In this document: positions 1-35,666 of the stretch, in pieces
Layout of the letters: each line of letters begins with the position of its first letter
Numbering within the stretch: position 1 is the first letter of the stretch
Assembly (NCBI GenBank): GCA_030684775.1
Contig: JAUXXW010000178.1
Location: 1-35,666, forward strand
Source: Pseudomonadota bacterium
GTDB lineage: Bacteria; Pseudomonadota; Gammaproteobacteria; Burkholderiales; Thiobacillaceae
Length of the DNA: 35,666 nt
Direction of reading: 5' to 3'
The notes under the pieces: generated by a model
Told to the model about the DNA's origin: nothing
Seen by the model: only the letters and a program-made list of their open reading frames with translations
The model's database searches: none
Made by a program: the position numbers and the translations under genes

Positions 1-195
1 ATCTGGTCAAGCAGACCCGCTTTGCCTCGGCGGCCGAGTTGGAGACCACCCTGGAACACTATTTGAAAATCTACAATCACCACATTCCACAACGGGCCTT
101 GCTCCACCAGACACCCATCCAGGCGTTGAAGAAATGGCAGACGGAAAAACCCGAATTATTCGTCAAGCGCGTTTACAAACAGGCGGGACTTGACA
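1..195 (+). mobile_element. Right end of an IS481-family insertion sequence (partial, left edge of window)
   Basis: The stretch encodes the C-terminal end of an IS481-type transposase and ends at TTGACA. Read inward on the other strand the tip is TGTCAAGTCCCGCC, with the TGT start usual for IS481-family ends. A related end occurs inverted at 35527-35666, and the two sequences part company right after this tip, which fixes the element border at about 195. The rest of the element lies outside the window. Confidence 0.85.
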
Positions 196-200
196 GCTAG
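3..200 (+). CDS. IS481-family transposase, C-terminal fragment
   Basis: An open frame runs from the window edge to TAG at 198-200. The last 65 residues include NHHIPQRALLHQTPIQALKKW and ELFVKRVYKQAGLDS, the usual end of the DDE integrase-core transposases of the IS481 family. The catalytic residues are upstream of the window. The element border lies near 195, so the stop codon is not inside the IS: TAG comes from the target sequence GCTAGC (196-201). That matches the known preference of IS481 for NCTAGN targets. Family assignment is confident; completeness of the gene cannot be judged. Confidence 0.85.
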   Translation: MVKQTRFASAAELETTLEHYLKIYNHHIPQRALLHQTPIQALKKWQTEKPELFVKRVYKQAGLDS

Positions 201-20893: not shown

Positions 20894-21419
20894 CTCGGTC
20901 CGCATCATCGGCGGCCGATACCGCAGCCGGGTGTTGCATTTCCCCGATGCACCCGGCCTGCGGCCAACGCCGGATCGGGTGCGGGAAACCCTGTTCAACT
21001 GGCTCGGCCAGCGCCTCGACGGCCTGGTCTGCCTGGATGCCTTCGCCGGCAGCGGAGCGCTCGGTTTCGAGGCCGCCTCGCGCGGCGCCGCGCGGGTGGT
21101 GCTGCTGGAACAGGAACGCGGCGCTCATGAAGCCCTGCTGAAAAACGCACAAGCACTGGCGATATCCGGCGTGGAAATCCTGCGCCGCGATGCACGCAGC
21201 CATCTCGCAAGTAGCAGCGACAGCTACGACCTGATCTTTCTCGACCCGCCCTTCGCCGGCGATTTGTTACCGATCATCCTCCCGCTCGCGGCGACACGCC
21301 TGGCACCTGACGGTAGAATCTACGCCGAATCGCCCAGGCCACTGGCACCGGAAGGCATGACAGTGTTGCGCCAGGGCCGCGCCGGGCTATCCCATTTCTG
21401 CTTGCTGGAGCTTGCTTGA
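20877..21419 (+). CDS. rsmD: 16S rRNA (guanine(966)-N2)-methyltransferase RsmD
   Basis: Methylates G966 of 16S rRNA during 30S assembly. The 180-residue protein has RIIGGRYRSRVL at the start, LRPTPDRVRETLFNWL, the SAM-binding DAFAGSGALGFEAASRGA, and the catalytic motif LIFLDPPF. It begins inside the end of the M16 gene (17-nt overlap with ATG at 20877; a GTG at 20865 is the alternative) and its stop overlaps the coaD start. Confidence 0.95.
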   Translation: MARASNSVRIIGGRYRSRVLHFPDAPGLRPTPDRVRETLFNWLGQRLDGLVCLDAFAGSGALGFEAASRGAARVVLLEQERGAHEALLKNAQALAISGVEILRRDARSHLASSSDSYDLIFLDPPFAGDLLPIILPLAATRLAPDGRIYAESPRPLAPEGMTVLRQGRAGLSHFCLLELA

Positions 21420-21898
21420 AACGCATCATCGTCTACCCCGGTACATTTGACCCAGTCACCCGTGGGCACGAAGATCTGGTGCGGCGCGCGTTGAAGCTGT
21501 GCGATGAAGTGGTCGTGGCGGTAGCTGACAATGCGCCGAAGAGTCCCTGTTTCAGCCTGGATGAACGCGTCGAGTTGCTGAGCCTGGCCCTGGCCGATCT
21601 GCCGGGGCTACGGGTACAGCCGTTCACTGGTTTGCTGGTCGACTTCGTACGTAGCGTCGGTGCCAACCTGGTGTTGCGCGGTCTGCGCGCGGTATCGGAC
21701 TTTGAATTCGAGTTTCAGTTGGCGGGCATGAATCGCCGTCTCGACCCGGAAATGGAAACCGTTTTTTTGACGCCGGCGGAACAGCACATGTTCATTTCCG
21801 CCAGCATGGTGCGCGAAATCGCGCGGCTTCATGGGGATGTGAGGCCGTTCGTACATCCAGAGGTGGCCAAGCGACTGGCCGCCAGATACAGCAATTGA
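21416..21898 (+). CDS. coaD: Phosphopantetheine adenylyltransferase CoaD
   Basis: Penultimate step of coenzyme A synthesis: transfers AMP to 4'-phosphopantetheine. The 160-residue protein shows YPGTFDPVTRGHEDLV, with the nucleotide-binding T-x-G-H, LRGLRAVSDFEFEFQLAGMNR, and the closing FISASMVREIARLHGDV. It begins with TTG, overlapping the rsmD stop (TTGA). rsmD-coaD-ferredoxin is a known neighbourhood in proteobacteria. Confidence 0.97.
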   Translation: MKRIIVYPGTFDPVTRGHEDLVRRALKLCDEVVVAVADNAPKSPCFSLDERVELLSLALADLPGLRVQPFTGLLVDFVRSVGANLVLRGLRAVSDFEFEFQLAGMNRRLDPEMETVFLTPAEQHMFISASMVREIARLHGDVRPFVHPEVAKRLAARYSN

Positions 21899-22168
<270 letters not shown>

Positions 22169-22187
22169 AGCGCTTGCGGTCATCCAG

Positions 22188-22216
22188 AAAAAAGCGCGGC
22201 CCGGCCGCGCTTTTTT
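22188..22216. terminator. Bidirectional intrinsic terminator after the ferredoxin gene
   Basis: A 13-bp perfect stem (22188-22200 with 22204-22216) with loop CCG has six A on the left and six T on the right, so it works for the ferredoxin operon and for the convergent PilZ-like gene. Confidence 0.92.
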
Positions 22217-22246
22217 CATCCCGGGTGCTTTTCCGCCGCGCCTGTC

Positions 22247-23824
22247 TTACTTTCCCCTTGGCGCAAGCGGCGGCTCGGCATCTTCCATCTGGAAGCGATA
22301 TATATCCACGCTGGGGGTGGACTCCAGGCGCGCGTCCACCTTGATGTCGTGCTTGCCCTGTGCGGTGCGCACTTCGGCCAGGACACCTGGTGCAAAGGTG
22401 CCGGGCAGGGAAAGCAGCATCGGCACCTGGCGGGTAATCGGGTTGGGCAGGAGCAACAGGCCGGGCCATTGGCGGCCGTTATCGATACGGCGCAATTGCA
22501 CGGCATCGGCCTGGGGCGCCAGGAGCTGCACACCAAAGAACATGTCGCCCGCCTCCGAAATGCGAAACCAGCGCACCAGGCCGATGCTCCAGGCGCCGTT
22601 GGCCTGAAGCAAGCCCACCACATCACCCACCCGGATCTGCACGCCGGGGCCGCTATGGCGCAAGGCCAGGCCACCCATGCTGTCGTCCACGATCCGGCAA
22701 CGTACCCGCGCGGGCGGTGCCTCGTTGCCGCCGGCGCTGAAGTGGGCGGCATTACCGGTCTGCGGCGGTGAGATCAGGTGATGCAGGGCCTTGAGACCAA
22801 AGCCGACTTCGAATTCGCGTTCGTCCTGATGCCGGCGGCGTTGCGCCATGCGTTGCAGGGAAGCCCCCCAATTCAGCCGGAGGCGGCGCAACATGCTGGT
22901 GTAGGCGGGATCGCGCGCGACTTCGGGCAGGCCGAGTTTCCCGATGTCTTCCTGTCCACGCAGATGCGAGCTGAGCAGTGCCAGATGCTTGGCCAGATCG
23001 GTGGTGTTGAGCAACAGTTCCCAACGCGGACTCATGGGATGCGGCTCGCGCGCGAGGGGACGCGGCGGGGCATCGGTATTGACCTCGATCAGGAACAGGC
23101 CGACATGGCTCTGAGTGGACTCATCGGCGGGGAACAGGCGCGCCAGATTGGAAAAACGGGCAATGATGTCCTTGGTCCATGGCAGTTCGCTTTGCGGAAA
23201 ATGGTAAGGATCGGACAGTGCCATCAGCAACGTGTCGAGGTAGATCCGCTCCAGCGAAAGCATGTGCTTGCCGCCCTCCGGAACCACATCCTTGAGGCCA
23301 CTGCGCAAGGCGTAGTTATAGGTCTGGTGCAAATCCATCCAGAGCCCATGCGGGCAGGACTCATGCGTCTCGTAGCAGATTTCCAGGAGTGACTGCAAAG
23401 CCAGAAGGATGCGTTGCAGGTATTGCGGCACCGGATTGCCGCCAAACAAATGGAAACGCTGCCCCAGCCATTCGAGGGTCAACACCTTGTGGCAATCGGC
23501 GATTTCCAGCAGCAGACGCCGCGCCAGTTCCGCATTGCGATGCTGCCTGGCGGGCAAAGGCAGAGGAACCGACCCGTATTGCTCGCGCAAGGAACCGACC
23601 ACGTCATCCACCACACGGTAGAGACGTTCGGCCACTTTGACGCGCACATCGTGGGAAACGTCGGCGCGGTTGAGCGTGGCGAGGTAATCGGCCAGTTCCT
23701 CAGCCGCCTCGGCGGGGTTGGACATGGGCAAGCGCAGGAGCCAAGCATCAACTTGCTTGGGCTTTGTCTCCAAGCTTATAGTGCGCGCCGGCTCGCGAGC
23801 GGGCAGGACGTATCTGGGTTGCAT
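22247..23824 (-). CDS. Large protein with C-terminal PilZ-like domain
   Basis: A 525-residue soluble protein. The N-terminal 350 residues look all-helical, with segments such as ADYLATLNRADVSHDVRVKV and QRILLALQSLLEICYETHE, and match no family I can name. From about residue 375 a beta-rich part begins with RCRIVDDSMGGLALR, which fits the [DN]xSxxG motif of PilZ domains. A properly spaced RxxxR motif is not obvious, so cyclic-di-GMP binding is uncertain. The start at 23824 has GGGA close upstream; a second in-frame ATG at 23725 lacks a ribosome site. It is a single-gene unit, convergent with the ferredoxin. Confidence 0.7.
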   Translation of the reverse strand: MQPRYVLPAREPARTISLETKPKQVDAWLLRLPMSNPAEAAEELADYLATLNRADVSHDVRVKVAERLYRVVDDVVGSLREQYGSVPLPLPARQHRNAELARRLLLEIADCHKVLTLEWLGQRFHLFGGNPVPQYLQRILLALQSLLEICYETHESCPHGLWMDLHQTYNYALRSGLKDVVPEGGKHMLSLERIYLDTLLMALSDPYHFPQSELPWTKDIIARFSNLARLFPADESTQSHVGLFLIEVNTDAPPRPLAREPHPMSPRWELLLNTTDLAKHLALLSSHLRGQEDIGKLGLPEVARDPAYTSMLRRLRLNWGASLQRMAQRRRHQDEREFEVGFGLKALHHLISPPQTGNAAHFSAGGNEAPPARVRCRIVDDSMGGLALRHSGPGVQIRVGDVVGLLQANGAWSIGLVRWFRISEAGDMFFGVQLLAPQADAVQLRRIDNGRQWPGLLLLPNPITRQVPMLLSLPGTFAPGVLAEVRTAQGKHDIKVDARLESTPSVDIYRFQMEDAEPPLAPRGK

Positions 23825-23948
23825 GTGTTCCCGTTACTCCTACGAGGGATTCGACGCTTCCGCTAACCGCGTCGCACCGTCGCATTCTACCTGCCGATAT
23901 TTCCCCCCGGAACGGCATTTTCCCCTCCTGTATCCCGGAGTCCTGGCG

Positions 23949-24084
23949 ATGAACCTGATCGAAAAAATCTTTGAAGGCCTGCTCCGGCGCGGTCGCCTTG
24001 ATCGGTCTGGTGCTGTACCTGACGCATGCCTCTGACGGGCATGGCGGGCAGGCCGCCGAGCAGCAAGCCGATAAATCCCACTGA
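23949..24084 (+). pseudogene. Small single-span membrane protein gene with an apparent frameshift
   Basis: An ATG at 23949 with GGAG upstream opens MNLIEKIFEG. The frame then turns into a basic, non-hydrophobic string, while the +1 frame continues with SGAVALIGLVLYLTHASDG and a hydrophilic tail ending KSH at TGA 24082-24084. Removing one C near 23979 joins both into a 44-residue protein with one membrane span. It stands 48 nt before the tlpA-like gene. The alternatives are a real small gene starting at TTG 23971 without a ribosome site, or a sequencing error. No family is recognised. Confidence 0.4.
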
Positions 24085-24132
24085 ACCTCCCCGGGCTCAC
24101 CCGGTCTGAAACGCTTTTGCCAGGACAGCGCC

Positions 24133-24582
24133 ATGATTTCACGCCTCAGCCTCTTCCTTTTCCTTCTCGCCGGCGCCTTCAGCGCCCAGGCCTTCACTTT
24201 CACCGACAGCAAGGGCAAGACCCAGAGCCTGGATCAGTACAAGGGCAAGTGGGTGCTGGTGAACTTCTGGGCCACCTGGTGCCCGCCCTGCCTGGAGGAA
24301 ATTCCCGACCTCGTCGCCCTGCACGAGAGCAAGAAAAACAACCTGGTGGTCATCGGCGTGGCGCTGGATTACCGCGACCCCAAGGAAGTGTTGCAGTTCT
24401 CCGACCAGATGATGATCTCCTACCCCATGGTGCTGGGCGATCACAAACTCGCCGCCCAGGTCGGCGCCATTCCCGGCCTGCCCACCACCTATCTGTTCAA
24501 CCCGCAGGGCAAACAGGTGGCCTACAACGTCGGCGCCGTCACCCGCGACGCCATCGAACGCTACATCCGCAACAAGAAATAA
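24133..24582 (+). CDS. TlpA/ResA-type periplasmic thiol-disulfide oxidoreductase
   Basis: A 149-residue thioredoxin-fold protein with signal peptide (MISRLSLFLFLLAGAFSAQA) and active site NFWATWCPPCLEEIP near residue 53. The cis-Pro loop is in GLPTTYLFNPQG. The WCPPC motif is that of TlpA/ResA/CcmG reductases, which deliver electrons to periplasmic cysteines. It is followed 10 nt later by a second exported thioredoxin-like gene. The substrate is unknown; the downstream proteins offer no obvious cysteine-rich or haem-binding client. Confidence 0.9.
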   Translation: MISRLSLFLFLLAGAFSAQAFTFTDSKGKTQSLDQYKGKWVLVNFWATWCPPCLEEIPDLVALHESKKNNLVVIGVALDYRDPKEVLQFSDQMMISYPMVLGDHKLAAQVGAIPGLPTTYLFNPQGKQVAYNVGAVTRDAIERYIRNKK

Positions 24583-24592
24583 GGTCACCCCT

Positions 24593-25108
24593 ATGCGCTG
24601 GCTCCTCCTCACGCTCGCCCTTGTCCTGCCGACCCTGCCCGCCCTGGCCGAAGTGCGCGACCCACACAGTCATTTCTTCATGTCCAAGATGGGCGACTTC
24701 AAGGACGAACTCGCCACCGCCAAGCAGGAAGACAAACAGGGCGTGCTGATCATGTTCGAAATGGAAGAATGCCCGTTCTGCTCACGCATGAAAGGCACGG
24801 TGCTCAACCAGTCCGAAGTACAGGACTGGTACCGCAAGCACTTCCTCATCTACACGGTGGACGTCAAAGGCGGCACCGACATGACCGACTTCCAGGGCAA
24901 CGCCACCACTGAAAAAGCCTTCGCCCTGGCCAACCGGGCGCGCGCCACCCCCACCTTCCTGTTCTTCGATCTGGAAGGCAACGCCATCACCCGCTTCACC
25001 GGCGCCACCCAGACCGCCGAGGAATTCATGCTGCTTGGCCGTTATGTGGTGGAAGGCGCCTACAAGACCCAAGCGTTCAACGTCTACAAGAAGGCCGCCA
25101 AACCATGA
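24593..25108 (+). CDS. Exported thioredoxin-fold protein with CPFC active site
   Basis: A 171-residue protein with signal peptide (MRWLLLTLALVLPTLPALA) and a thioredoxin_2/SoxW-like domain. The redox motif is EMEECPFCSRMK at about residue 60, a cis-Pro is found in ARATPTFLFFD, and the Gly-rich strand ITRFTGATQ follows. The CPFC motif and charged flank resemble DsbD-gamma-like or SoxW-type proteins rather than TlpA, so the two neighbours probably form a relay. It overlaps the next gene by 4 nt (ATGA). Confidence 0.85.
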   Translation: MRWLLLTLALVLPTLPALAEVRDPHSHFFMSKMGDFKDELATAKQEDKQGVLIMFEMEECPFCSRMKGTVLNQSEVQDWYRKHFLIYTVDVKGGTDMTDFQGNATTEKAFALANRARATPTFLFFDLEGNAITRFTGATQTAEEFMLLGRYVVEGAYKTQAFNVYKKAAKP

Positions 25109-26385
25109 AATGCTGGTTGCCGATCCTCGCGCTCCTCACCAGCGGCGCCCTGGCAGCCGAACCGGCGCCGCCCCTCACTCTGGAAACCGTGCTGACGCAG
25201 GCCGAAGCGCCGCACCCCGACCTCGACCTCGCCCGCGCGCAACGGGCCGGCGCCCTGGCCGAACAACAACTCGCGGAGAGCCTCTCCGACTTCCGCGTCA
25301 CGCTGGAAGGCGCGCTGCGCACCGGGCGCAACCAACTCAACAACGACCGTTTCCAGCCCGACCACCAGGCCCGCCTCAACGCCCGCAAGACCCTGTTCGA
25401 TGCCGGCCGCCAGGACAGCGGCCTGGCGGCCGCGCGCGACGAAACCGCCGCGCGTGACCTGCAACTGCTCGACACCCGTGGCCAGCGCCGCCTCACCCTG
25501 ATGGCGCGCTATTTCGATGTACTGCTGGCCGACATGCAATACACCGCCGACACCGAATTCATGGCGACCGCCTACGTGTCCTGGGACAACGCCAAGGACC
25601 GCCTGGCCCTGGGGCAGATGGCGCAGTGGGAACTGGCGGAACTGGAGGCGCGCTACCTCGACAGCCTGGCGCGTCGCAATGACGTGCGCCGCAAGTTGCG
25701 CGACAAGCGCATGCAACTCGGCCTCGCGCTCAACCGTTCGGAAACCGTGCGGGAAGACTTGGTCGACCCCAAGCTCAGCGGCAACGAACGCAAGCTGCCG
25801 GAACTGATGCCGCTGCTCGACACCATGCTCGCGCACAACCCGCGCCTGCTGGCCCAGAAGCAATTGCTCACCGCCACGCGCAACCGCATCGAAGGCGTGC
25901 GCGCCGACAACCGTCCCAGCGTCGAATTCGAAGCCGAAGCCGCCGCCTGGAGCCGTGATTCCAGCACCCGCGACGACCTCCGCGCCGGCCTCAACTTCGT
26001 CTGGCCGCTATGGCAGGGTGGCCGCGTCGATGCCCGCATGGCGCGCGAACAGGCCACCTTCCAGGAACGCCAGGCCCAGCACGACAAGCTGCAACAGGAA
26101 CTGCGCCAGACCCTGGCCGACACCTGGGAAGAAATCCACTATCTGCGCGAAAGCGAACGCCGCGGCAGCGAAGCCAACTCACTCTACCGCGACCTCGCCC
26201 TGGAAAAAGCGCGCGCCGAATATGAACTGGAACTGAAAACCAACCTCGGCAGCAGCATGGCCGAAACCCAATCCGCCCGGCTGCGCAAACGCGCCGTCGA
26301 ATACCGCCTGGCACTCGCCATCGCGCGCCTGGAAGCCCTGCTGGGCACACCGCTGGAAACCGTGAAAGTAGAGGAAAAGATATGA
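25105..26385 (+). CDS. TolC-family outer membrane efflux protein
   Basis: A 426-residue protein with signal peptide (KCWLPILALLTSGALA). It carries two OEP-type halves rich in long amphipathic helices (LDLARAQRAGALAEQQLAES; RMAREQATFQERQAQHDKL; ETQSARLRKRAVEYRLALAI). This is the layout of outer membrane channels that dock with a membrane-fusion protein. It is translationally coupled to both neighbours by ATGA overlaps. A typical N-terminal lipobox is absent. Confidence 0.88.
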   Translation: MKCWLPILALLTSGALAAEPAPPLTLETVLTQAEAPHPDLDLARAQRAGALAEQQLAESLSDFRVTLEGALRTGRNQLNNDRFQPDHQARLNARKTLFDAGRQDSGLAAARDETAARDLQLLDTRGQRRLTLMARYFDVLLADMQYTADTEFMATAYVSWDNAKDRLALGQMAQWELAELEARYLDSLARRNDVRRKLRDKRMQLGLALNRSETVREDLVDPKLSGNERKLPELMPLLDTMLAHNPRLLAQKQLLTATRNRIEGVRADNRPSVEFEAEAAAWSRDSSTRDDLRAGLNFVWPLWQGGRVDARMAREQATFQERQAQHDKLQQELRQTLADTWEEIHYLRESERRGSEANSLYRDLALEKARAEYELELKTNLGSSMAETQSARLRKRAVEYRLALAIARLEALLGTPLETVKVEEKI

Positions 26386-27227
26386 ATCAGAGTCTTGTCG
26401 AGACTTTGCGAAACCCGCAGCACAGCTATTCCGTAGGGTGGATAAGCGAAGCGCATCCACCATTGGCGGCGAGGATGGTGGATGCGCTCCGCTTATCCAC
26501 CCTACCGCTTCTGTTCGCTTTGGTCGCCGGTAACGCCATGGCGGCTGACCTTCCCGCCACGCTTGACTGGTCCGGCCGCGTCAGCCTCACCTTGCCGGTC
26601 GCCGGCGTGATCGAACAGGTCAACGTCCAGGCCGGCCAGACGGTGAAAAAGGACGAACTGCTTGCCGCCCTCAACCCCACCCTGTTCAAAGCCGGCATCG
26701 CGGAAACCCGCGCCGACCTCGACCGCCTCATTCAGGAAGAAGCCGACGCCAGCCGCGACCTCGACCGGGTCAAGGAGCTCTACGCGCGCACCGTCTCCTC
26801 CACCACCGAACTCGACGCCGCCAAACTCCGCCACGCCCGCGCCCAGGCCGGGCTGGCCGCCGCCCAGGCGCGGGTGGAAAAAGCCCGCCGTCTGCTCGCC
26901 GAATCGGAACTGCGCGCCCCCTTCGACGCCATCATCCTCGCCCGCCATGGCGAACCCGGCCTGGTCATCACCTCCCCCTGCCAGCCCGCCGCCGTCGTCA
27001 GCATCGCCCGCGCCGACGAATGGCTCGCGCGCGCGCCCATCGAAGCCGCGCAAGCCGCCAACCTGCGTCTAGGCGAAGAAGCCAGCGTGCAGATCGCCGG
27101 CCAGACCGTCAAAGGCCGCATCCGCGCAATCACCGCGCAACCGGAAGGCCGCGCCCTCCTCGACGTCGTCCTCCCCCGCACCGCCGGCACCTGGGCCGGC
27201 CAGGCCGCCAGTATTCGCCTGCCCTGA
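26382..27227 (+). CDS. HlyD/RND-type periplasmic adaptor with repeat-derived N-terminus
   Basis: A 281-residue membrane-fusion protein. A split lipoyl domain is visible (VAGVIEQVNVQAGQTVKKDELLAALN and LRAPFDAIILARHGEPGLVI, each read in parts) around a helical hairpin with ELYARTVSSTTELDAAKL, followed by a short beta-barrel. The start at 26382 overlaps the tolC stop and has GAGG upstream. Between this start and the hydrophobic export segment (LPLLFALVAGNAMAA) lies a 73-bp palindromic repeat, translated in frame as VGWISEAHPPLAARMVDALRL. The n-region of the signal is therefore very long unless translation begins at ATG 26475, inside the right arm of the repeat. No inner-membrane pump follows. 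Confidence 0.85.
   Translation: MNQSLVETLRNPQHSYSVGWISEAHPPLAARMVDALRLSTLPLLFALVAGNAMAADLPATLDWSGRVSLTLPVAGVIEQVNVQAGQTVKKDELLAALNPTLFKAGIAETRADLDRLIQEEADASRDLDRVKELYARTVSSTTELDAAKLRHARAQAGLAAAQARVEKARRLLAESELRAPFDAIILARHGEPGLVITSPCQPAAVVSIARADEWLARAPIEAAQAANLRLGEEASVQIAGQTVKGRIRAITAQPEGRALLDVVLPRTAGTWAGQAASIRLP
26433..26505. repeat. 73-bp palindromic repeat inside the adaptor gene
   Basis: Two 31-bp arms (26433-26463 and 26475-26505) are complementary except for one position and enclose an 11-nt centre. The edges are GTAGGGTGGAT and ATCCACCCTAC. This edge style (GTAGG...CCTAC) is shared with the repeats at 27306-27435 and 27462-27487. The element keeps the reading frame of the adaptor open. 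Confidence 0.9.
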
Positions 27228-27305
27228 CACCCACCTTGTTAGGTAGCGTGGGGCGTTGATGCTTCACGACCTCTCCTCGCCCGATCAATCTGAATCCATA
27301 GAAGC

Positions 27306-27435
27306 GTAGGTTGGGCAAAGCGCAGCGTGCCCAACAACCCGTCGCCATGTTGGGCACGCCGCGCTTTGCAGCCGCAAGGGGCACGCCGGATTCGTAAGCC
27401 GCTAAAGCGGACAACGACTCCGCTGCCCAACCTAC
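27306..27435. repeat. Composite palindromic repeat downstream of the adaptor gene
   Basis: Outer arms GTAGGTTGGGC (27306-27316) and GCCCAACCTAC (27425-27435) are perfect complements. Inside them lie 20-bp arms (27317-27336 and 27349-27368) with one mismatch. About 55 nt of further sequence stand between the right inner and right outer arm, as though a second element had inserted into a symmetric palindrome. Confidence 0.8.
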
Positions 27436-27440
27436 GTCTA

Positions 27441-27487
27441 CTTGCCCGCGATTGGTGGCGGCTATCGCGGGCAAGCCCGCTCCTACG
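27441..27487. repeat. REP-like element related to the palindrome in ispE
   Basis: CTTGCCCGCGAT (27441-27452) and ATCGCGGGCAAG (27464-27475) are perfect inverted copies. The right part continues as GCGGGCAAGCCCGCTCCTACG, of which 27462-27486 matches ispE 4473-4497 at 23 of 25 positions. It lies between the adaptor gene and the convergent GH77 gene. Confidence 0.75.
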
Positions 27488-27512
27488 ACGCGGCCAACGG
27501 CTGTTTCCAGGA

Positions 27513-29453
27513 TCAATCGACGCGCCAGCCCGCGCGAGCCTCCAACCTGGCGATGAGTGCCGAACTGGCGCGGGCGATTTCCGGGCGGGCGCGCAAGGCC
27601 AGCGCCAGCGCCGCGTGGAGGTTGAGCGCCTCGCCTCGACTCGTGTCTTCTGCATGGCGGCGGGCAAAGTCCGGTGGCACCCGCAGGATCCAGTTGTCCT
27701 CGGCCACTTTGCCCGGCACGTTGTAGCTCTCCTCCAGCCCGAACAGGTCGGCGAAGAACAGCATGACGTGGCGGGCGGGACTCAGGAACAGGTCCGCCAC
27801 CTTGGCGTGGGCCAGTTTTCGGTAGTCGGCGGCCAGAACGGCGGCCAGTGGCTCGGGGGCATCCGGGCGCAAACGACGCGCGAGATAGGCCGCCTGCCGG
27901 CATCCTTCATCCCGCCCCTGCCAACCTTTAGCCAGGCGCCATAGTGACGGCGTGTCGTGGTTACCCACCATGACCCAGTCCTCGGGCTGCGCGTTCTCGC
28001 CACGATAGACGTCTCGGGGATCGTCCAGATTCGCCTTCTGGGTCACCCGGAAGCGACCCAGACCGTGCTGCAGGCGTACCCGCCGCAGCGGCAGCGGCTC
28101 GGTAGAGAGCACCTCGCACAAAATATCCTCGCGGCGCCGGCCGTGGGTGCTCACCTGTGCCATGAGGGCATCCACGAGCAACGCGTAGCGACCCTCCTGA
28201 TCGAGGTCGAGGTCTCGCACCCAATCGTCCGCGTAACGCGGCCGTGTCCGGTCGACCTGCTCCGGCCGCGCGATGGCATGTCGGCCCAACCCGGGATGGT
28301 CGGGCAGGTCCGGTGAAGCGAACAGCCGCGCCCCGTTCTGCACCGCGTGATACGGGTCAGGGTCGTCAGCGCGATAGACCCAGGGGCAGACCAGGCCGTG
28401 CGGATGATCCAGACGCAGGCCGTCAAACTCCGCGAGCATCTTGCCCAGGCGCTCGGCGACGAAATCGAGCACCGGGCCGGAGCCGCCATCGGCGCCCAGA
28501 TAGCGCGCCGGGTCCAGCACCTGGTAGTTCCACGGCTGGCCCTCGACATTGGTACGGCTGGGTGGCGCGCCCATGCAGTAGTCGCGCAGCAGCAAAGCCT
28601 GCCGACTCCAGGCATCGCGCTGTGAAAAACCCACCTGCACGTCACCGTAAATCTTCAGCCCCAACGCCCGCATGCGGCCAAGGAGGGCCCGATGCTGTTC
28701 CAGCAGGATGAGTTGGACCAGGGCGTAGCGTTCCAGGAGGCCACCATATTTCAACCGCAAAGCCTGCCGCCTACCCTCGCAGGCCGCCGCGACCGCGGCC
28801 GGCGGGTCGGGCAACAATCGGTCCAAACCGCCCTCACCTGCTTGCGGCCACTGCCGCCAGGGCAGGTGTCCGTGTTCCTGGCAAAGCGCCTCATACAGGG
28901 CGTCGTCGCGCAACCAGCGGTTGTTTTGCCAGAGGTCGGCAAGCGCGATGCTCAGCCGCACCGCTTCGGGCTCACCCTGCCGGCGCGCCTCGGTGAAACG
29001 GTGATGGATCTCGTCCAGCGCATGCTCATAGGTGTCGAACGCGTAAGCGTAGGCCACCCCGCACCCGTCGGGACGCGGATTGCCGGCCACCGCCGCGCGC
29101 CAGGTTTCTTCGCTCAACAAGCCGCCCCACGCGGCATCGTGAGCGAGGGCGCCCAGATCCAGGGAAAGGAAATTGCGGGAGAACAGCGTGCCGTCATAGG
29201 GCGAAGGGTTGACCGAAGAGGTCTGCCCCTGCGGGCCCAGTTGCAGACCCGTGAAACCCAGGGAACGAGCGAAGCCGGCCAGCGCCAGCCCCCCCGCGCC
29301 GTAGGGACTGCCACGCCCGCAGTCCTCGCCTTCCACACCGGGAAAACTGGCATCGTGCACCGCCAGAAGAAAATCCGACTTGCCCAGCAGGCGCAGGGCC
29401 TCGGAAAGGTCAGGGTCGGGCTGGAATTGCGTTGATCTCGGCGGGTCGAGCAT
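27513..29453 (-). CDS. Divergent GH77 4-alpha-glucanotransferase (amylomaltase-like)
   Basis: About 646 residues. GH77 landmarks are SPYDGTLFSRNFLSLDL near the N-terminus, IYGDVQVGFSQRDAW, the nucleophile region FDGLRLDHPHGLVCPW, the acid/base block EDILCEVLSTEPLPL, and the transition-state stabiliser VGNHDTPSLW. This suggests transfer of alpha-1,4-glucan segments in glycogen or maltodextrin metabolism. The substitutions (RLDHPHG instead of the usual RIDHFRG; CEVLS instead of AEDLG) mark a divergent branch, so the activity may differ. ATG 29453 is chosen; an in-frame TTG at 29471 is equally free of a clear ribosome site. No glycogen genes are adjacent. Confidence 0.78.
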   Translation of the reverse strand: MLDPPRSTQFQPDPDLSEALRLLGKSDFLLAVHDASFPGVEGEDCGRGSPYGAGGLALAGFARSLGFTGLQLGPQGQTSSVNPSPYDGTLFSRNFLSLDLGALAHDAAWGGLLSEETWRAAVAGNPRPDGCGVAYAYAFDTYEHALDEIHHRFTEARRQGEPEAVRLSIALADLWQNNRWLRDDALYEALCQEHGHLPWRQWPQAGEGGLDRLLPDPPAAVAAACEGRRQALRLKYGGLLERYALVQLILLEQHRALLGRMRALGLKIYGDVQVGFSQRDAWSRQALLLRDYCMGAPPSRTNVEGQPWNYQVLDPARYLGADGGSGPVLDFVAERLGKMLAEFDGLRLDHPHGLVCPWVYRADDPDPYHAVQNGARLFASPDLPDHPGLGRHAIARPEQVDRTRPRYADDWVRDLDLDQEGRYALLVDALMAQVSTHGRRREDILCEVLSTEPLPLRRVRLQHGLGRFRVTQKANLDDPRDVYRGENAQPEDWVMVGNHDTPSLWRLAKGWQGRDEGCRQAAYLARRLRPDAPEPLAAVLAADYRKLAHAKVADLFLSPARHVMLFFADLFGLEESYNVPGKVAEDNWILRVPPDFARRHAEDTSRGEALNLHAALALALRARPEIARASSALIARLEARAGWRVD

Positions 29454-29471
29454 CTGAAGGTCTGGCGGCAA

Positions 29472-30051
29472 GCTGTGCTCAGCTTACACCATCCCGTCTC
29501 ACCGCTTCACCCTGCCAGGGGATTGGCGATCATGTGAAAGCCAACTTCACTTGAGCCGTTGGATGTTCTGAAGCGCCGCCAGCCTGATAGGCAGCAAGTA
29601 CCGACCAGGAACAGCCGCCGAGATAACCTTTATTAGCACAGATGAGTGGCTGGTGTTCAGCGCCTTGCCGACCCTCAGGACGAAGAGACCGATGACTCTT
29701 GATCGGCCAAACCGGACGGCTAGGCGGTGCCTCCAGCTTGGTGTGAACGTCAGCAATTGGGATCGCATGCGTCGGGCCGTGTCCGGCCAGGCACCACCGT
29801 TGGCGGAGCGGGAAAACTGTGTTGATGTGCGACCGGTTTGCTGCGGTAAACGGCCTGCCGTGAGACTGACACGGTCATCGGTGCATCAGCCATGGCATCA
29901 GTCAGACACATCGCGGCGGCCGAGCTCAGTTTTGCTTTATCAGCGGCCTTCATGCTCAGCAAGCTGATAGTCACGGAGCATGATGTATCGACCTTCACCC
30001 GCACAGTTCAACCAGACAACCAGAGGGTAACAAGGAGGCGTAATCAACGGA
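29472..30051. other. Intergenic region without recognisable genes (580 bp)
   Basis: Between the GH77 gene and the Sel1 gene stop there is no frame with a convincing ribosome site or known family. Short open stretches on both strands (for example minus 29750-30004) have no recognisable domain. Nothing resembles a tRNA or a strong terminator. It may be decayed sequence at the border between core and accessory DNA. Confidence 0.5.
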
Positions 30052-31101
30052 CTACCGCCGCCCTACTCGTTGGTCATCGACAGGTATCGGTTGCCATTTC
30101 TCAATCTGGCGATCGGCGGTCTGTCGCTGGGTGGGGGTCAGGCGCTCGCGGCCCAGATCACGAAGTTCAGACACTTGCGGCATTTGGCGAGCGGCCAGAG
30201 ACCACCAGACATAGGCCTGCACGGGATCTATGCCGACACCGACGCCTTCATCATAAAAACTACCGAGTTCCACTTGCGACCGAGGGTGCCCGCGTTCAGC
30301 TGCGGCCAAAACCCAGCGCAGGGCCTCGTCATCGCTCTTCGTCACACCCTGCCCATTCAGGTAAGCAAGTCCAAGCTCATATTGCGCCGGCGGGTATGCG
30401 GCGTGGGCGGCGCGCGTCAGCCATCGGACCGACTCCGCGTCGTCCTTCGGTACCCCTTGTCCCTTCCTGTGAAGCAAAGCTAGATAGAACTGCGCGGCGG
30501 GCAGGCCGTCATCTGCGGCGAGCCGAAACCACTTGGCCGCCTCTGATTCGTCCTGGGCAACGCTCCGGCCAAACCGATAAAAGACACCGATGTTCAAACG
30601 CGCGCTGGGATGTCCTGCTTCCGCGGCCTTGCGAAACCACTCAAACGCCTGAGCATTGTCCCTGGCGACGCCTTCCCCATCCGCGTACAACACGCCCAGG
30701 TTGTAGGCACCGCTGGCGTGGCCTTGGCTTGCCGCCTTGCGATACCACTCAGCCGCAACCGCCTGATCCTTGGACACCCCACGGCCGCCCGCATACATCA
30801 CGCCGACGTTGTACTGTCCTTCGAGATGGCCCTGTCTTGCAGACTTGCGATACCAGGACAAGGCCAAGTCATCGTTGCGCGGAACCCCCAGCAGCCCGTA
30901 GGAATAGACGCTGCCGAGCACGGCCTGCGCTTCCGCGTCCCCCTGTTCCGCTCCAGCACGCAAGGTCTGCACAGCGACGGTACGGTCGCCTCGTTCCAGC
31001 GCCTTCTGAGCTTCTTGGGTCGGGCTCGCATAAACATGTGCCGAAAACAGCACTACCACGAACCCACACAGCGTGATCAGACGCACGATCAACCTCCGCA
31101 T
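30052..31101 (-). CDS. Secreted Sel1-repeat protein
   Basis: Up to 349 residues with a signal peptide (VRLITLCGFVVVLFSAHVYA) and seven Sel1-like repeats in tandem. Examples are EGQYNVGVMYAGGRGVSKD, SGAYNLGVLYADGEGVARD and PAQYELGLAYLNGQGVTKS; the last unit ends in VWWSLAARQ. Such solenoids mediate protein-protein contacts in the periplasm or at the surface. Start choice: ATG 31101 has no ribosome site, whereas GTG 31086 is preceded by GGAGG at 6 nt, making a 344-residue protein more likely. Sel1 proteins are known as immunity proteins of some T6SS phospholipase effectors and as signalling scaffolds; neither partner is visible here. It is divergent from the ankyrin genes. Confidence 0.9.
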   Translation of the reverse strand: MRRLIVRLITLCGFVVVLFSAHVYASPTQEAQKALERGDRTVAVQTLRAGAEQGDAEAQAVLGSVYSYGLLGVPRNDDLALSWYRKSARQGHLEGQYNVGVMYAGGRGVSKDQAVAAEWYRKAASQGHASGAYNLGVLYADGEGVARDNAQAFEWFRKAAEAGHPSARLNIGVFYRFGRSVAQDESEAAKWFRLAADDGLPAAQFYLALLHRKGQGVPKDDAESVRWLTRAAHAAYPPAQYELGLAYLNGQGVTKSDDEALRWVLAAAERGHPRSQVELGSFYDEGVGVGIDPVQAYVWWSLAARQMPQVSELRDLGRERLTPTQRQTADRQIEKWQPIPVDDQRVGRR

Positions 31102-31303
31102 CCAATGATGGTCTTTTCAGCTTAGACGACCACCATTCATGCCGACTGGTGGCTGCACACCGATTGCGCGAGATCTGGATGCCAAGACAGCCATCGACCG
31201 GATCCGACCAGGGGCCGGCGGTCTTGGTCCCATGGAGAATCCTGCAGTAGTGGTCTAGAAATCAATAAGAAGAGCAGGATGTTTTTTTGAACGGGGGGCA
31301 AGG

Positions 31304-32401
31304 ATGAAATTGATCGCTCATGGATTTCCGGTCAGGTTGGTGGCTTTGCTCGCTGCTTGTGGGTTGCCTCTCTCTAGTCTGGGCGCCGCGGAAACAGACC
31401 CTGTATTGGAACGGATTATGGAGGCGTGCGTTAAAGCCAAGACACCCGCCGCCTTGAAGCAGATCGGGCCAAAGTTCAAAAATCGTGAAGAAGCCGCCCA
31501 ATTAGTCCAATTCATTTGTCGAACCCAGGCGCGCGTCTGCATGGATAAACCTGATGGCGATGATTGCCTGAAGGTACTTCACGACTACAGATTAGGCGAT
31601 CCGAACTACACCCCGCAGCTTGGAGCATCTTTGTATGGTGCCGCAGAGCGGGGTGCCAGCGATATCGTTCGTGACTTGCTGGCCAACGGCTTCGATCCGA
31701 ACTGGCATAACGAGGTAGGCTGGACGCCATTGATGATCGCCGCCGCCGAGGGGCATAAGGACACGGTGGCCTTGCTGCTGGAAGCCAAGGCCAACCCCAA
31801 CGCGCGCAACACTTTTGGGCGGACTGCGTTGATGTACGCGTCGAAATACGGCTTCATATCCATAGTCAAAATGCTGCTTGAGGCCGGTGCCGATCCCAAT
31901 GTCAGACCGAAGAAGATTGATGACCAGACTGCCCTGATAGCGGCATCAGAGCAAGGCCACCTTGAAGTGGTACTTGCCTTGTTGGGGCATGGGGCGGACG
32001 CCAACATAGAAATCATCTATGGCTATTCGCCTCTATCGGCCGCAGTGGGGAAGGACTACGCCAACATTGTGAACGCCTTGTTGAAGGCACGCGCCGACCC
32101 GAACCAGAAAAATACTTTTGGGAACAGCCCATTTCTCCTTGCCATATCCGCCGGTCATACTGAGATAGTCAAACTCATGCTGGAATCCGGCGCCAATCCT
32201 GACTCAAAGAACGTCATATCGAACACCGCATTGATGATTGCCTCGCTGCGTGGGAATATGGATATCGTGAAAGTATTGATCGCCAAAGGCGCCGAGGTCA
32301 ATGCCCTTAACATGATGGGGAGGTCGGCTATCACGATGGCAAAAGATGGAGGCTACGATATAGTAATTGAAATACTCAGACAAGCGGGAGCAACTGAATA
32401 A
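31304..32401 (+). CDS. Exported ankyrin-repeat protein (8 repeats, three-Cys module)
   Basis: A 365-residue protein starting with a Sec signal-like segment (PVRLVALLAACGLPLSSLGA). Residues about 30-95 form a helical, cysteine-containing module (ICRTQARVCMDKPDGDDC). Eight ankyrin repeats follow to the C-terminus, for example GWTPLMIAAAEGHKDTVALL and GRTALMYASKYGFISIVKML. The ribosome site GGGGGGCAAGG precedes the ATG. Repeats 1-4 and the last repeat align with those of the lipoprotein at 34151, so the two are paralogues. Function is unknown: ankyrin stacks bind proteins, and export suggests a periplasmic partner. LAACG in the signal could also be a lipobox, but it lies early. Confidence 0.85.
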   Translation: MKLIAHGFPVRLVALLAACGLPLSSLGAAETDPVLERIMEACVKAKTPAALKQIGPKFKNREEAAQLVQFICRTQARVCMDKPDGDDCLKVLHDYRLGDPNYTPQLGASLYGAAERGASDIVRDLLANGFDPNWHNEVGWTPLMIAAAEGHKDTVALLLEAKANPNARNTFGRTALMYASKYGFISIVKMLLEAGADPNVRPKKIDDQTALIAASEQGHLEVVLALLGHGADANIEIIYGYSPLSAAVGKDYANIVNALLKARADPNQKNTFGNSPFLLAISAGHTEIVKLMLESGANPDSKNVISNTALMIASLRGNMDIVKVLIAKGAEVNALNMMGRSAITMAKDGGYDIVIEILRQAGATE

Positions 32402-32423
32402 TATCTGACAGGAGGGAAAGGAC

Positions 32424-33296
32424 ATGAAAACCAGATTCCAAACGTTTATTATTACAGCATTGGCATGTATTATTTATTCGTCTTCAAGTATGGCGGGACC
32501 ACTCCATGACGCCATAAAAGATAAAAACAAGAAGCAGATAGAAATGTTGATCGTTCAAGGCGTCGGATTGAATGAGACAGATAAGGAAGGGTATACGCCA
32601 CTCCACTTGGCAGCCATGGCCGGTAACCTGGAATTAGGAAAACAGCTTATTTCTCATGGCGCCAACCCTAATGCCAGAGGTAAACATGGCGCCCCACCTC
32701 TGCAATGGGCGATCCTTGGTGGGCATGCTGAGTTTGTTGAATTACTGATTAATAAGGGGGCAAGTGTTGAACTAAGGGACGATTATTTTCTCACCCCGCT
32801 GCATATCGCAGCAATGGAAGAAAATACGGACATAGTGATATTTCTCGTTGCACAGGGTGCCGACGTGAATGCTCAAGGGAAAGATGGCGCCACGCCTTTG
32901 CACTGGGCAGCCAAGCCTGGGAATCAGACCGTGGTGGAAGTGTTACTCGCGAATGGCGCCGATGTCGATGCTACGAACCAATACGGCACCACCGCGCTAC
33001 ATGTCGTGGCCGAGACGGGACATATCCCTATTGCAACCATACTGATCGCCAGGGGGGCGAATGTCAATGCCAAGGGCATCATCAACTCGACACCTCTCCA
33101 CTATGCGGCGCTGACTGGGCAGTTGCAGATGGCAAAGCTCCTTATTGAAAGGGGCGCCAAAGTCAATGCCACCAACGAAATGGGTGCCACCTCTTTACAA
33201 ATAGCCGCAGAATATGGTCATGCCGATGTTGTTGATCTCCTCAAGAAGCATGGAGGTCGTCAAGGCTCAATCAATAATAGTGGTGGGCATGAGTGA
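32424..33296 (+). CDS. Exported ankyrin-repeat protein (8 repeats)
   Basis: A 290-residue protein with a signal peptide (TFIITALACIIYSSSSMA; cleavage before GPLHDA) followed directly by eight ankyrin units close to consensus, such as GYTPLHLAAMAGNLELGKQL, GATPLHWAAKPGNQTVVEVL and NSTPLHYAALTGQLQMAKLL. Unlike its two neighbours it lacks the cysteine module. CAGGAGG lies 9 nt before the ATG, and the gap to the preceding gene is 22 nt, so they are probably co-transcribed. Codons with A/T at the third position are frequent, unlike the housekeeping genes, which points to transfer. No binding partner is known. Confidence 0.87.
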   Translation: MKTRFQTFIITALACIIYSSSSMAGPLHDAIKDKNKKQIEMLIVQGVGLNETDKEGYTPLHLAAMAGNLELGKQLISHGANPNARGKHGAPPLQWAILGGHAEFVELLINKGASVELRDDYFLTPLHIAAMEENTDIVIFLVAQGADVNAQGKDGATPLHWAAKPGNQTVVEVLLANGADVDATNQYGTTALHVVAETGHIPIATILIARGANVNAKGIINSTPLHYAALTGQLQMAKLLIERGAKVNATNEMGATSLQIAAEYGHADVVDLLKKHGGRQGSINNSGGHE

Positions 33297-33354
33297 TTAG
33301 CCTGCTCATGCCACGCTCCATAGGTGATCGAGCGGCGAAATATCAGGAGTAGAC

Positions 33355-33420
33355 ATGCTTTACGTAGTGCCATGGAGGCCATGGCTCACAATAAGTTCAA
33401 GCCTTGGTAAGATAATGTGA
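33355..33420 (+). CDS. Possible 21-residue leader or gene remnant
   Basis: An ATG at 33355 has a strong ribosome site (AGGAG, 5 nt spacing) and opens 21 codons beginning MLYVVPWRPWLTISSSLG, ending at TGA 33418-33420. It stands in the gap before the orphan lipoprotein. It could be a leader peptide, a small protein, or the start of a gene lost by deletion. Support rests on the ribosome site alone. Confidence 0.25.
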   Translation: MLYVVPWRPWLTISSSLGKIM

Positions 33421-33475
33421 ACTAGGCTCATTTGGCACGGCTCATTTAAAAATACCTACATATTGGACAATCATT

Positions 33476-34045
33476 ATGCCCCGTTACCTAGCGACACTAT
33501 TTTGCTTGCTTGGCATACTTATTCAAGGGTGCGCGACTAATTATGAAGCGCCACAAGGCGAACCAATTGCAAAGTTGCGAATTATTTCAAACGTCTCCAA
33601 TAACAATTACATAACAGTTGGCGACAATCCAACCTGTATTGCTGCTGGTAGTCCTGAATTCGAGCCAAAGATTGCAGTGCTTGGCGCTCTTGCTAATTCG
33701 ATGATAAATAATGGAGCGGGTGTTAGTGTGGGTGTCCCGCTCCCAACAGGCAGACTTTCAAAACAAACCACAGAGGTTCTCGTTCCTGCGGGGAAGCCGT
33801 TTGTGCTACATGGCGCTGCCATGTCGCTTTGGCGAATCCAGTGGCCAGGCACCATAATTTATAATTACTGTAAAGCTGGGGTTATATTCACGCCTGATGA
33901 AAATAGCGCATATGAAGCGGTCTTTAACAAAGAGCCATCAGATAACTGCACATTTTCAATATATCAGTTTGAACAGGTCGGCGAGTCAGCATGGATACGC
34001 GTGCCACTAGTGAGCGCAAAGTCGATAACAAAACTCTGTCGCTAA
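33476..34045 (+). CDS. Orphan lipoprotein, 189 residues
   Basis: The N-terminus MPRYLATLFCLLGILIQGCATN is a lipoprotein signal with the acylated Cys at about residue 19; the following Ala-Thr does not suggest inner-membrane retention. The mature part is beta-rich (AKLRIISNVSNNNYITVGDN; TEVLVPAGKPFVLHGAAMSLW) and has four further Cys residues. No family is recognised; the shape is that of a small outer-membrane-anchored beta-domain. It is AT-rich like its neighbours. The gap before it includes a TTGGCA and a TACATAT, but their spacing of 19 is not convincing as a promoter. Confidence 0.75.
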   Translation: MPRYLATLFCLLGILIQGCATNYEAPQGEPIAKLRIISNVSNNNYITVGDNPTCIAAGSPEFEPKIAVLGALANSMINNGAGVSVGVPLPTGRLSKQTTEVLVPAGKPFVLHGAAMSLWRIQWPGTIIYNYCKAGVIFTPDENSAYEAVFNKEPSDNCTFSIYQFEQVGESAWIRVPLVSAKSITKLCR

Positions 34046-34150
34046 TTAAAGTGGTCAACCAAAGGGGCTGGGCTTGAATTGTTGAGTGGGATGTAACACC
34101 TGCCAAGCATATGAAAATGACACCATCGGAAGACTGAAAAAGGGAAACAA

Positions 34151-35317
34151 ATGAACGCCATAGGAAGGGTGATGATATTGCTGATGGTCGTAGGCATGGC
34201 CTCCTGCGCATCAGTAGGTGAAGATGTGGTGCCGGAAGCGCTTAAGGAAACGCCAATTTCTGGGCTTCTGATGACATGCGATAGCCCATACCAGCTTACA
34301 CAAGATTGTTCCGCCACCACTGGGGCAAGCAGACGTATTGTCCTCGACGGAATAGAAGCAAGAATTGCTGGGTCCAAGGATGGCAAGCATGTATTTCTTA
34401 TGAATGCGCCCCCAGGAGGCATGGACTTTCTTGTCACGCAGTATGATACTGAACTCAGCAATAGCGTCTACTACGCTTTGCAGCGAGTATTGCGAAATCA
34501 TGGCATGAAAATAGAGCGGGTGGTGCCGGTGGGAAACCTCGGAAAAGCGGTAGGGTACCTATTAGAAGTTGATGGTGACGCGTACTCCATACTCCTTACT
34601 GCTGGTCGAAAACAGGAAGAACGCTCGTTTGATCAAGTTATTTATGATGACTGTATGCTGGTGCAAGTAAAAGAATTCAAGAAAAATGGGAAAGATAAGC
34701 CAGAAATGGTCGCCCATTACGTCTGTAAAGTAATTTCCGGTATATGCCGGGATAACGCAGGTGGAAACGGGGAAGAATGTAGAAAAGGAACTGCTGCTTA
34801 TATTTATATTAAAGACAGGGAGGGTTATGGCCCATCAGGGTTATACAAAGCAGCCGAGGCTGGAAATACCTTACTTGTTAAGAAGCTTCTTGAGGTGGGG
34901 TATGACCCTAACGCCAACTTGGGTGGCCCGGGATTAACGCCATTGATGATCTCGGCGGCGGTAAATAATCCAGAGTCTGTGGCAGTGCTTATAAAATCTG
35001 GGGCGAATGTCAATGCACGTAATAAACTTGGTCGAACTTCGTTAATATTGGCATCCAAATATGGTTTTGTGCCAATTGTAAAATTGCTTTTGGACGCAGG
35101 TGCAGACCCCGATATAAGACCTAATGACATGGAAGGGCACACAGCGCTGATTGCGGCATCTAAACAAGGCTATTCGGAAGTGGTGCAAGTCTTGTTGGCG
35201 CAAGGCGCGAATGTTAATGCACCCGACAAGATGGGCATTACGGCCATGGGAATTGCCAAGAAGCAGGGGCATGCAGAGATAATAAGAATTCTCAGCCAGG
35301 CCGGGGCGGTCGAATAG
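34151..35317 (+). CDS. Ankyrin-repeat lipoprotein (5 repeats, three-Cys module)
   Basis: A 388-residue protein with a lipoprotein signal (VMILLMVVGMASCAS; Cys near residue 19). Residues about 30-190 form a domain with no recognised family (FLMNAPPGGMDFLVTQYD; VGYLLEVDGDAYSILLTAGR). Then comes the module CKVISGICRDNAGGNGEEC, matching in spacing the one of the protein at 31304, and five ankyrin repeats (GLTPLMISAAVNNPESVAVL to GITAMGIAKKQGHAEIIRIL). It is probably tethered to a membrane with the repeats facing the periplasm. It appears related to the 31304 protein through loss or gain of three internal repeats plus a different N-terminal part. Confidence 0.85.
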   Translation: MNAIGRVMILLMVVGMASCASVGEDVVPEALKETPISGLLMTCDSPYQLTQDCSATTGASRRIVLDGIEARIAGSKDGKHVFLMNAPPGGMDFLVTQYDTELSNSVYYALQRVLRNHGMKIERVVPVGNLGKAVGYLLEVDGDAYSILLTAGRKQEERSFDQVIYDDCMLVQVKEFKKNGKDKPEMVAHYVCKVISGICRDNAGGNGEECRKGTAAYIYIKDREGYGPSGLYKAAEAGNTLLVKKLLEVGYDPNANLGGPGLTPLMISAAVNNPESVAVLIKSGANVNARNKLGRTSLILASKYGFVPIVKLLLDAGADPDIRPNDMEGHTALIAASKQGYSEVVQVLLAQGANVNAPDKMGITAMGIAKKQGHAEIIRILSQAGAVE

Positions 35318-35455: not shown

Positions 35456-35666
35456 CTAGCGCGCCTGAGGATGTCGCGCGTATGCACTCAACCATTGAGT
35501 GCCAACAATAGGGCACCTCGAATAACTGTCAAGTCCCGCCTGTTTGTAAACGCGCTTGACGAATAATTCGGGCTTATCCGCCTGCCACTTTTTCAGCGCC
35601 TGTATGGGGGTTTGATGGTGCAAAGCCCTTTGTGGGATGTGATGGTTGTAGATTTTCAAATAGTGC
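35456..35666 (-). CDS. IS481-family transposase, C-terminal fragment with read-out extension
   Basis: The frame enters at the window edge and encodes IYNHHIPQRALHHQTPIQAL and so on, ending ELFVKRVYKQAGLDS, nearly the same protein as the left copy (three substitutions in the shared 46 residues). The IS border is near 35527. Here the flank reads GTTATT instead of a CTAG, so no stop is supplied and the frame runs another 23 codons (YSRCPIVGTQWLSAYARHPQAR) to TAG at 35456-35458. The C-terminal tail is thus host-derived. Whether this transposase still works is unknown. Confidence 0.8.
   Translation of the reverse strand, partial: HYLKIYNHHIPQRALHHQTPIQALKKWQADKPELFVKRVYKQAGLDSYSRCPIVGTQWLSAYARHPQAR
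35527..35666 (-). mobile_element. Right end of a second IS481-family copy (partial, right edge of window)
   Basis: The tip is TGTCAAGTCCCGCC at 35527, identical to the left copy and in inverted orientation to it. The outer 47 bases are identical between copies, while the next 94 bases differ at about 16 positions, mostly silent. They are related but not identical elements. Confidence 0.85.

What the first reader, a model, noticed from the sequence alone, without database searches (positions are those of the whole stretch)
30052..35317. Cluster of exported solenoid proteins: Sel1 plus three ankyrin proteins plus an orphan lipoprotein
Five exported proteins, four of them built of repeats, lie together in AT-rich DNA next to an IS. 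Sel1 and ankyrin proteins with signal peptides occur as immunity proteins against type VI lipase effectors, so this could be an orphan immunity array gathered from different donors. Alternatively they may form a surface- or periplasm-based recognition system. This is the best candidate in the window for an undescribed system.
Basis: inference. Interest (0 to 1): 0.7.

Follow-up and report, generated by a model that had tools for sequence, protein, structure and literature searches.

The report
Exported ankyrin and Sel1 gene cluster
Five neighbouring genes encode exported proteins, four of them built of binding repeats; two of them form a pair kept together in one related bacterium, and the set is probably a locally acquired kit that binds something in the cell envelope, possibly incoming toxins, although no toxin partner was found.

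Summary
The cluster is real. It holds sel1 (-), ank1, ank2, a lipoprotein gene and ank3 (all +), each product with an export signal by pattern. Corrections: sel1 is not AT-rich; the "orphan" lipoprotein has distant relatives in other families of the order; the IS is an IS481-type 3' remnant at the contig end. ANK1 and ANK3 are homologues sharing an N-terminal cap with four invariant cysteines that matches no Pfam family. The divergent sel1/ank1 pair, plus a 91-aa cap-only lipoprotein, recurs in one same-genus MAG at a different locus; no comparable match was seen in 59 other relatives. In a close relative the site carries marR-, glgB- and glgE-like genes instead, so the block is an insertion or rearrangement. 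The immunity idea has good precedents: E. cloacae Tli is an ankyrin lipoprotein and Klebsiella Sel1E a Sel1 immunity protein. But neither bearer shows a T6SS sheath gene, no effector was matched among the ORFs scanned on either contig, and orphan immunity cannot be shown by sequence. Best reading: a rare, mobile, envelope-localised binding module, possibly orphan immunity (about 0.35). Moderately interesting; not a demonstrated new system.

The parts
30052..31101 (-). sel1: exported Sel1-repeat protein, 349 aa, 7 Sel1 stretches
   Evidence: Pfam Sel1 E 1.9e-67; G004 ortholog 58% over residues 4-349, next best of 61 genomes 41%
31102..31303 (.). 202-bp divergent intergenic region between sel1 and ank1; a stretch just upstream of ank1 (CTAGAA..CAATAAGAAGAG) is kept in the relative G004
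   Evidence: alignment of the two intergenic regions
31304..32401 (+). ank1: probable lipoprotein, four-Cys cap plus about 8 ankyrin repeats (by length), 365 aa
   Evidence: Pfam; G004 ortholog 51% over 4-262; cap alignment
32424..33296 (+). ank2: exported ankyrin protein without cap, 290 aa, 22 bp downstream of ank1
   Evidence: Pfam; scores higher against ankyrins of other genomes than against ANK1
33476..34045 (+). small lipoprotein, 189 aa, member of a family with no Pfam model
   Evidence: lipobox-like site C19; relatives mostly 26-30% identical in other families of the order; no Pfam match for it or for four relatives
34151..35317 (+). ank3: lipoprotein, unique N-terminal domain (about residues 20-163), four-Cys cap, about 5 ankyrin repeats (by length), 388 aa
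   Evidence: Pfam; 41% to ANK1 over 220 aa; N-domain found in 1 of 399 order genomes, its own
35456..35666 (-). IS481-type transposase 3' end, cut by the contig end
   Evidence: NCBIfam IS481 E 4e-4, far below its cut-off; about 71% DNA identity to plasmid genes annotated ISKpn27 (IS481-like) transposase
29495..30051 (.). 557 bp without recognised genes between the end of synteny with G019 and sel1; left border region of the block
   Evidence: synteny with G019 stops at 29494; no similar DNA in plasmids or in the other loci held at that time

Best explanation
A rare, horizontally placed module of exported repeat proteins whose core is a divergent sel1/ank1 pair, expanded here by an ANK1 homologue (ANK3), a second ankyrin (ANK2) and a small lipoprotein. 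Shown: the gene order, the homology of ANK1, ANK3 and the G004 proteins through a four-cysteine cap, conservation of the divergent pair at another locus in a second species, and absence of the block at the same site in a close relative. Inferred: Sec export, lipid anchoring of ANK1 and ANK3, disulfides in the cap, and binding of a protein ligand in the periplasm by the concave ankyrin/Sel1 surfaces. Most likely ligand, as a guess: enzymes delivered by competitors, such as lipases, which the solenoids would cup and neutralise as E. cloacae Tli does. That makes it an orphan immunity set. Structural and envelope-binding part about 0.75; immunity part about 0.35.
For: Family matches and export patterns. 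sel1/ank1 divergent pair kept in G004 at 58% and 51% with intergenic spaces of 202 and 155 bp and different flanks. Four invariant Cys in all four cap copies. Cap rare: own genome only, plus one partial hit that is not credible, in 369 class genomes, and one other contig in a GTDB collection scan that reaches close relatives only. Synteny with G019 stops 23 bp past the malQ start, where G019 has marR-, glgB- and glgE-like genes. Precedents: Tli of E. cloacae is an ankyrin lipoprotein that neutralises a phospholipase in the periplasm (PMC11470151, passages); Sel1E protects against VgrG4 (PMC7108748, passages).
Against: No effector family among 32 window ORFs or 18 ORFs of the G004 contig; vipA absent from both bearers. 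Tle1 domain also 0 of 2, but that search's controls were silent, so it shows nothing. Only two genomes are known to carry the pair, so conservation rests on one comparison. Ankyrin and Sel1 repeats bind many kinds of partner. No structure could be predicted.
Confidence: 0.37

Rival explanations
1. An envelope-maintenance set: periplasmic and lipid-anchored scaffolds that help assemble or protect an endogenous protein of the cell envelope, as exported ankyrin and Sel1 proteins do in other contexts.
For: Some ankyrin genes of relatives lie near TonB, ExbB-type, ExbD or porin genes; several of the lipoprotein's relatives lie beside housekeeping genes, named by eye.
Against: Matches comparable to SEL1 and ANK1 are seen in 2 of 61 genomes only, own included, and at different loci, unlike a housekeeping function; no client gene is shared by the two flanks.
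Confidence: 0.33
2. A chance pile-up at a breakpoint rich in insertions: sel1/ank1 is one transferred pair; ank2, the lipoprotein gene and ank3 arrived or were duplicated separately and share no function.
For: GC differs from gene to gene; ANK2 and the lipoprotein have other nearest relatives; IS remnant at the edge.
Against: ank1 and ank2 are 22 bp apart, all four + genes are co-directional and all products look exported; ANK3 is an ANK1 homologue.
Confidence: 0.2
3. A surface or periplasmic recognition (defence) system against phage or predators.
For: Patchy, inserted, built of binding repeats; PADLOC ankyrin models match, but only over the repeats. PHROG families of unknown function also match SEL1 (E 5e-81) and the ankyrins, again over repeats.
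Against: No enzymatic or pore-forming partner matched in the block; no relative of the lipoprotein, the ANK1 cap or the ANK3 N-part in three scans of viral contigs, which speaks only to carriage by phages.
Confidence: 0.1

Closest known systems
Tli, immunity protein of the Tle6-type phospholipase of Enterobacter cloacae (PMC11470151; passages read)
   Same: Ankyrin-repeat lipoprotein exported to the periplasm; six repeats, close to the five to eight here.
   Different: Tli is encoded with its lipase and works with a T6SS; here no lipase neighbour and no vipA. No four-Cys cap is mentioned in the passages read; the Tli sequence was not compared with ours.
Sel1E, immunity protein for VgrG4 of Klebsiella pneumoniae (PMC7108748; passages read)
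   Same: Sel1-repeat protein encoded in a group of repeat-protein genes.
   Different: Five sel1 genes lie downstream of vgrG4 there, and no lipoprotein signal was predicted for Sel1E; ours is single, divergent from an ankyrin gene and without vgrG.
Imm-ank and polyimmunity loci of polymorphic toxin systems (PMC3482391; passages read)
   Same: Ankyrin proteins listed as immunity proteins in heterogeneous polyimmunity loci.
   Different: No immunity-family domain (SUKH, SuFu, Imm families) was matched in the Pfam scan of the five proteins.
Periplasmic ankyrin AnkB paired with a catalase in Pseudomonas (recalled; only a search listing was seen)
   Same: Exported ankyrin protein.
   Different: No catalase among the 32 window ORFs scanned.

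Membership tests
T6SS lipase immunity (Tli) | Exported or lipid-anchored binding protein | tested here: met
   Signal and lipobox patterns only
T6SS lipase immunity (Tli) | Cognate lipase effector gene adjacent | tested here: not met
   32 window ORFs, the five of the block included, scanned with Pfam: no lipase, VgrG or PAAR. G004 contig: 18 ORFs scanned, the three of the module included, none either; two of them and the 91-aa protein had no match. The window ends 349 bp after ank3, so the right side is unseen
T6SS lipase immunity (Tli) | T6SS in the same genome (not needed for orphan immunity) | tested here: not met
   VipA 0 of 2 bearers; 7 of 23 genus genomes have it. Given 7 of 23, 0 of 2 has probability 0.47 by chance. 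Both genomes are draft assemblies
T6SS lipase immunity (Tli) | Binds and blocks an effector | not testable with these tools
Polymorphic-toxin immunity array | Immunity-family domains next to or among the genes | tested here: not met
   Only ankyrin-type and Sel1 families reach their cut-off in the five proteins, apart from a weak TPR match in SEL1
Known anti-phage defence systems (PADLOC) | System-specific proteins beyond ankyrin repeats | tested here: not met
   Three of the five proteins match PDC-M72A, Ankyrin and MzaA models, over their ankyrin stretches; SEL1 and the lipoprotein match nothing
Catalase-associated AnkB | Adjacent catalase gene | tested here: not met
   No catalase in the Pfam scans of 32 window ORFs
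Sel1-repeat proteins | Sel1 repeats above the curated cut-off | tested here: met
   221.8 bits against a cut-off of 30.7
Ankyrin-repeat proteins | Ankyrin repeats above the curated cut-off | tested here: met
   ANK1, ANK2 and ANK3 all above cut-off

The most novel reading that the evidence does not exclude
A small, mobile, so far undescribed envelope-defence cassette: a divergent pair of an exported Sel1 protein and a lipoprotein with a new four-cysteine cap on ankyrin repeats, which grows by duplication and by gain of repeats (ANK1 has about three more than ANK3 or the G004 protein) and neutralises envelope-targeted toxins in bacteria that lack the weapon themselves.
Probability: 0.2. Interest if true: 0.6.

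Novelty: new variant of a known kind. Interest (0 to 1): 0.35.

Why it matters
Bacteria without a type VI system may carry borrowed immunity genes; exported ankyrin and Sel1 clusters like this would be an under-annotated form of them. The four-cysteine cap gives a tag by which such ankyrin lipoproteins could be told from the mass of ankyrin proteins. If the immunity reading fails, it is an ordinary acquired cluster of repeat proteins.

Tried and rejected
Plasmid collection by protein: lipoprotein none; ANK3 189 records, none covering 80% of the query, the 20 listed matching from residue 207 or later, that is mainly the repeats. Viral contigs: no relatives in three scans. Solved structures: nothing credible for the lipoprotein, the ANK3 N-part or the cap profile; whole ANK3 gives 459 distinct sequences, and the two Tli entries were not among the 60 shown. 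The weak G295 cap hit (E 0.005, 22-aa open frame, a stop inside) was rejected. Sel1 and ankyrin genes near each other in other relatives: besides G004, 2 of 29 fetched loci (L054 and L061). In L054 they are codirectional 257 bp apart, in L061 1.4 kb apart; neither was pursued, since neither is the capped family. Consensus promoters and terminators were not above chance. Short DNA repeats of 17-29 bases inside the genes look like coding repeats and give no block border. NCBIfam hits to Dot/Icm ankyrin effectors, MzaA and MerG are far below their cut-offs and reflect repeats.

Full report
What is there. The window is the whole of contig C16 of a 3.85-Mb, 227-contig genome. The region holds sel1 (30052-31101, -), ank1 (31304-32401, +), ank2 (32424-33296, +), a lipoprotein gene (33476-34045, +) and ank3 (34151-35317, +), followed by the end of an IS481-type transposase (35456-35666, -) cut by the contig edge. 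Export is supported by patterns only: lipobox-like sites at C19 in the lipoprotein and ANK3, LAAC at C19 in ANK1, ordinary signal-like segments in SEL1 and ANK2. The G004 counterpart of ANK1 has a clear LAGC lipobox. GC falls from 0.67 in malQ and 0.62 in sel1 to 0.46-0.53 in the four + genes; in G004 the ank1 counterpart is at 0.61. Of five matches to ANK1 in this genome, probably four genes, three lie here.

Family structure. ANK1 and ANK3 are homologous over cap and repeats: 41% over 220 aa. The cap, about 65-80 residues, keeps four cysteines in all four copies found: ANK1, ANK3, G004 ANK1 and a 91-aa G004 lipoprotein that is little more than signal and cap. It has no Pfam match and no credible solved relative. 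Four conserved cysteines in an exported protein suggest two disulfides; that is inference. The first repeats of ANK1 match ANK3 at 48% and G004 at 51%. The last repeat of ANK1 matches the last of ANK3 (17 of 34) better than its positional equivalent does (8 of 33), though against the G004 tail both score 8. So ANK1 carries about three extra repeats, central by the ANK3 comparison, gained there or lost in the others. ANK2 has no cap and scores higher against ankyrins of other genomes than against ANK1 (175 against 118 bits). ANK3 also carries an N-terminal domain found in 1 of 399 order genomes, its own.

The lipoprotein is not an orphan. It has no match in the 60 nearest relatives but matches in 17 other genomes of 399 in the order at E<=0.01; eight of these are at E<1e-4, the rest weak. 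The nine fetched loci, from those eight genomes, hold proteins that share the lipoprotein-like start; six of the nine ORFs are 175-207 aa, two are longer as read from the first start codon and one is short. Several lie beside pyk-, fba-, pgk- and metK-like genes (named by eye from the translations), and none of the nine has a SEL1 or ANK relative in the stretch at E 1e-3.

Distribution. SEL1 at E<=1e-40 matches 11 of 61 genomes, but only G004 (58%, residues 4-349) looks like an ortholog; the next is 41%. For ANK1, 57 of 61 genomes match; in the rows listed (the list was cut) G004 is the only other genome whose match covers the cap, the others starting at residue 85 or later. The cap profile rings in the own genome and, not credibly, in one other of 369 class genomes; G004 was not reported in that sample. 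The GTDB collection scan gave one relative out of 30 pattern matches, CAMDGQ010000041.1, a MAG named Tepidiphilus sp. J10 MiH-14oct19-223, whose contig length equals that of G004:C41. So two genomes are known to carry the pair. In G004 it is flanked by a Rieske protein, a sigma-54-type activator and Rnf genes on one side and by a cytochrome c and CRISPR genes (cas3, CT1975, cas5) on the other. In the window the left flank is malQ.

Insertion. Synteny with the close relative G019 (mostly 89-93%) runs over 18631-29494, from the edge of the fetched stretch and with small gaps, and stops 23 bp past the start of malQ. G019 continues with a MarR regulator, a glycogen-branching-enzyme-like protein and GlgE, then a treS-like gene (by eye). 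malQ itself is in 3 of 23 genus genomes. The block is therefore an insertion or one side of a rearrangement; the other border is off the contig.

Mechanism. Repeat solenoids bind proteins. Published precedents make immunity plausible: E. cloacae Tli, an ankyrin lipoprotein, cups and inhibits a phospholipase (PMC11470151, passages; commentary PMC10294624, passages). Sel1E protects against VgrG4 (PMC7108748, passages). [quoted passage not shown] In Ralstonia, T6SS auxiliary clusters include Sel1 immunity genes, and two of them hold ankyrin genes upstream of vgrG (PMC11481896, passage). Against a T6SS link: vipA is found in 0 of 2 bearers and 7 of 23 genus genomes, a difference that chance explains easily (0.47). 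No lipase, VgrG or PAAR was matched among 32 window ORFs or 18 ORFs of the G004 contig. An orphan immunity set predicts just such an absence, so the test does not separate the readings. Literature searches for the combination returned no paper whose listing described such a sel1/ankyrin lipoprotein pair; that is not proof that none exists.

Verdict. A real, rare, acquired cluster with one conserved core pair and a new cysteine-rich cap. Function is unproven; orphan immunity is the leading specific guess at about 0.35, an envelope-maintenance role close behind.

Noticed in passing
L048:5154-10585 (G002), L047:148-5597 (G015), L053:1921-5386 (G029): Ankyrin genes near a DUF2341/laminin-G-fused ExbB, ExbD, TonB or Porin_5 gene, in parts, in three genomes of the genus and family; looks like a Ton-type motor cluster with an ankyrin partner.
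   Followed up: partly
window 57-199 and 35523-35666: Inverted, 88% identical IS481-type pieces at the two ends of the contig: the assembly probably broke at IS copies.
   Followed up: no
L054:4035-5749 (G051): A Sel1 gene with a lipoprotein-like start and an ankyrin gene with a signal-like start, codirectional and 257 bp apart, in a single-contig genome of another family; not the capped family.
   Followed up: no
L028:11032-11307 (G004): A 91-aa lipoprotein that is little more than a signal and the four-Cys cap, without ankyrin repeats.
   Followed up: partly
L083-L091 (nine loci): Family of small lipoproteins across families of the order; no Pfam match for the window member or four relatives tried.
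   Followed up: partly
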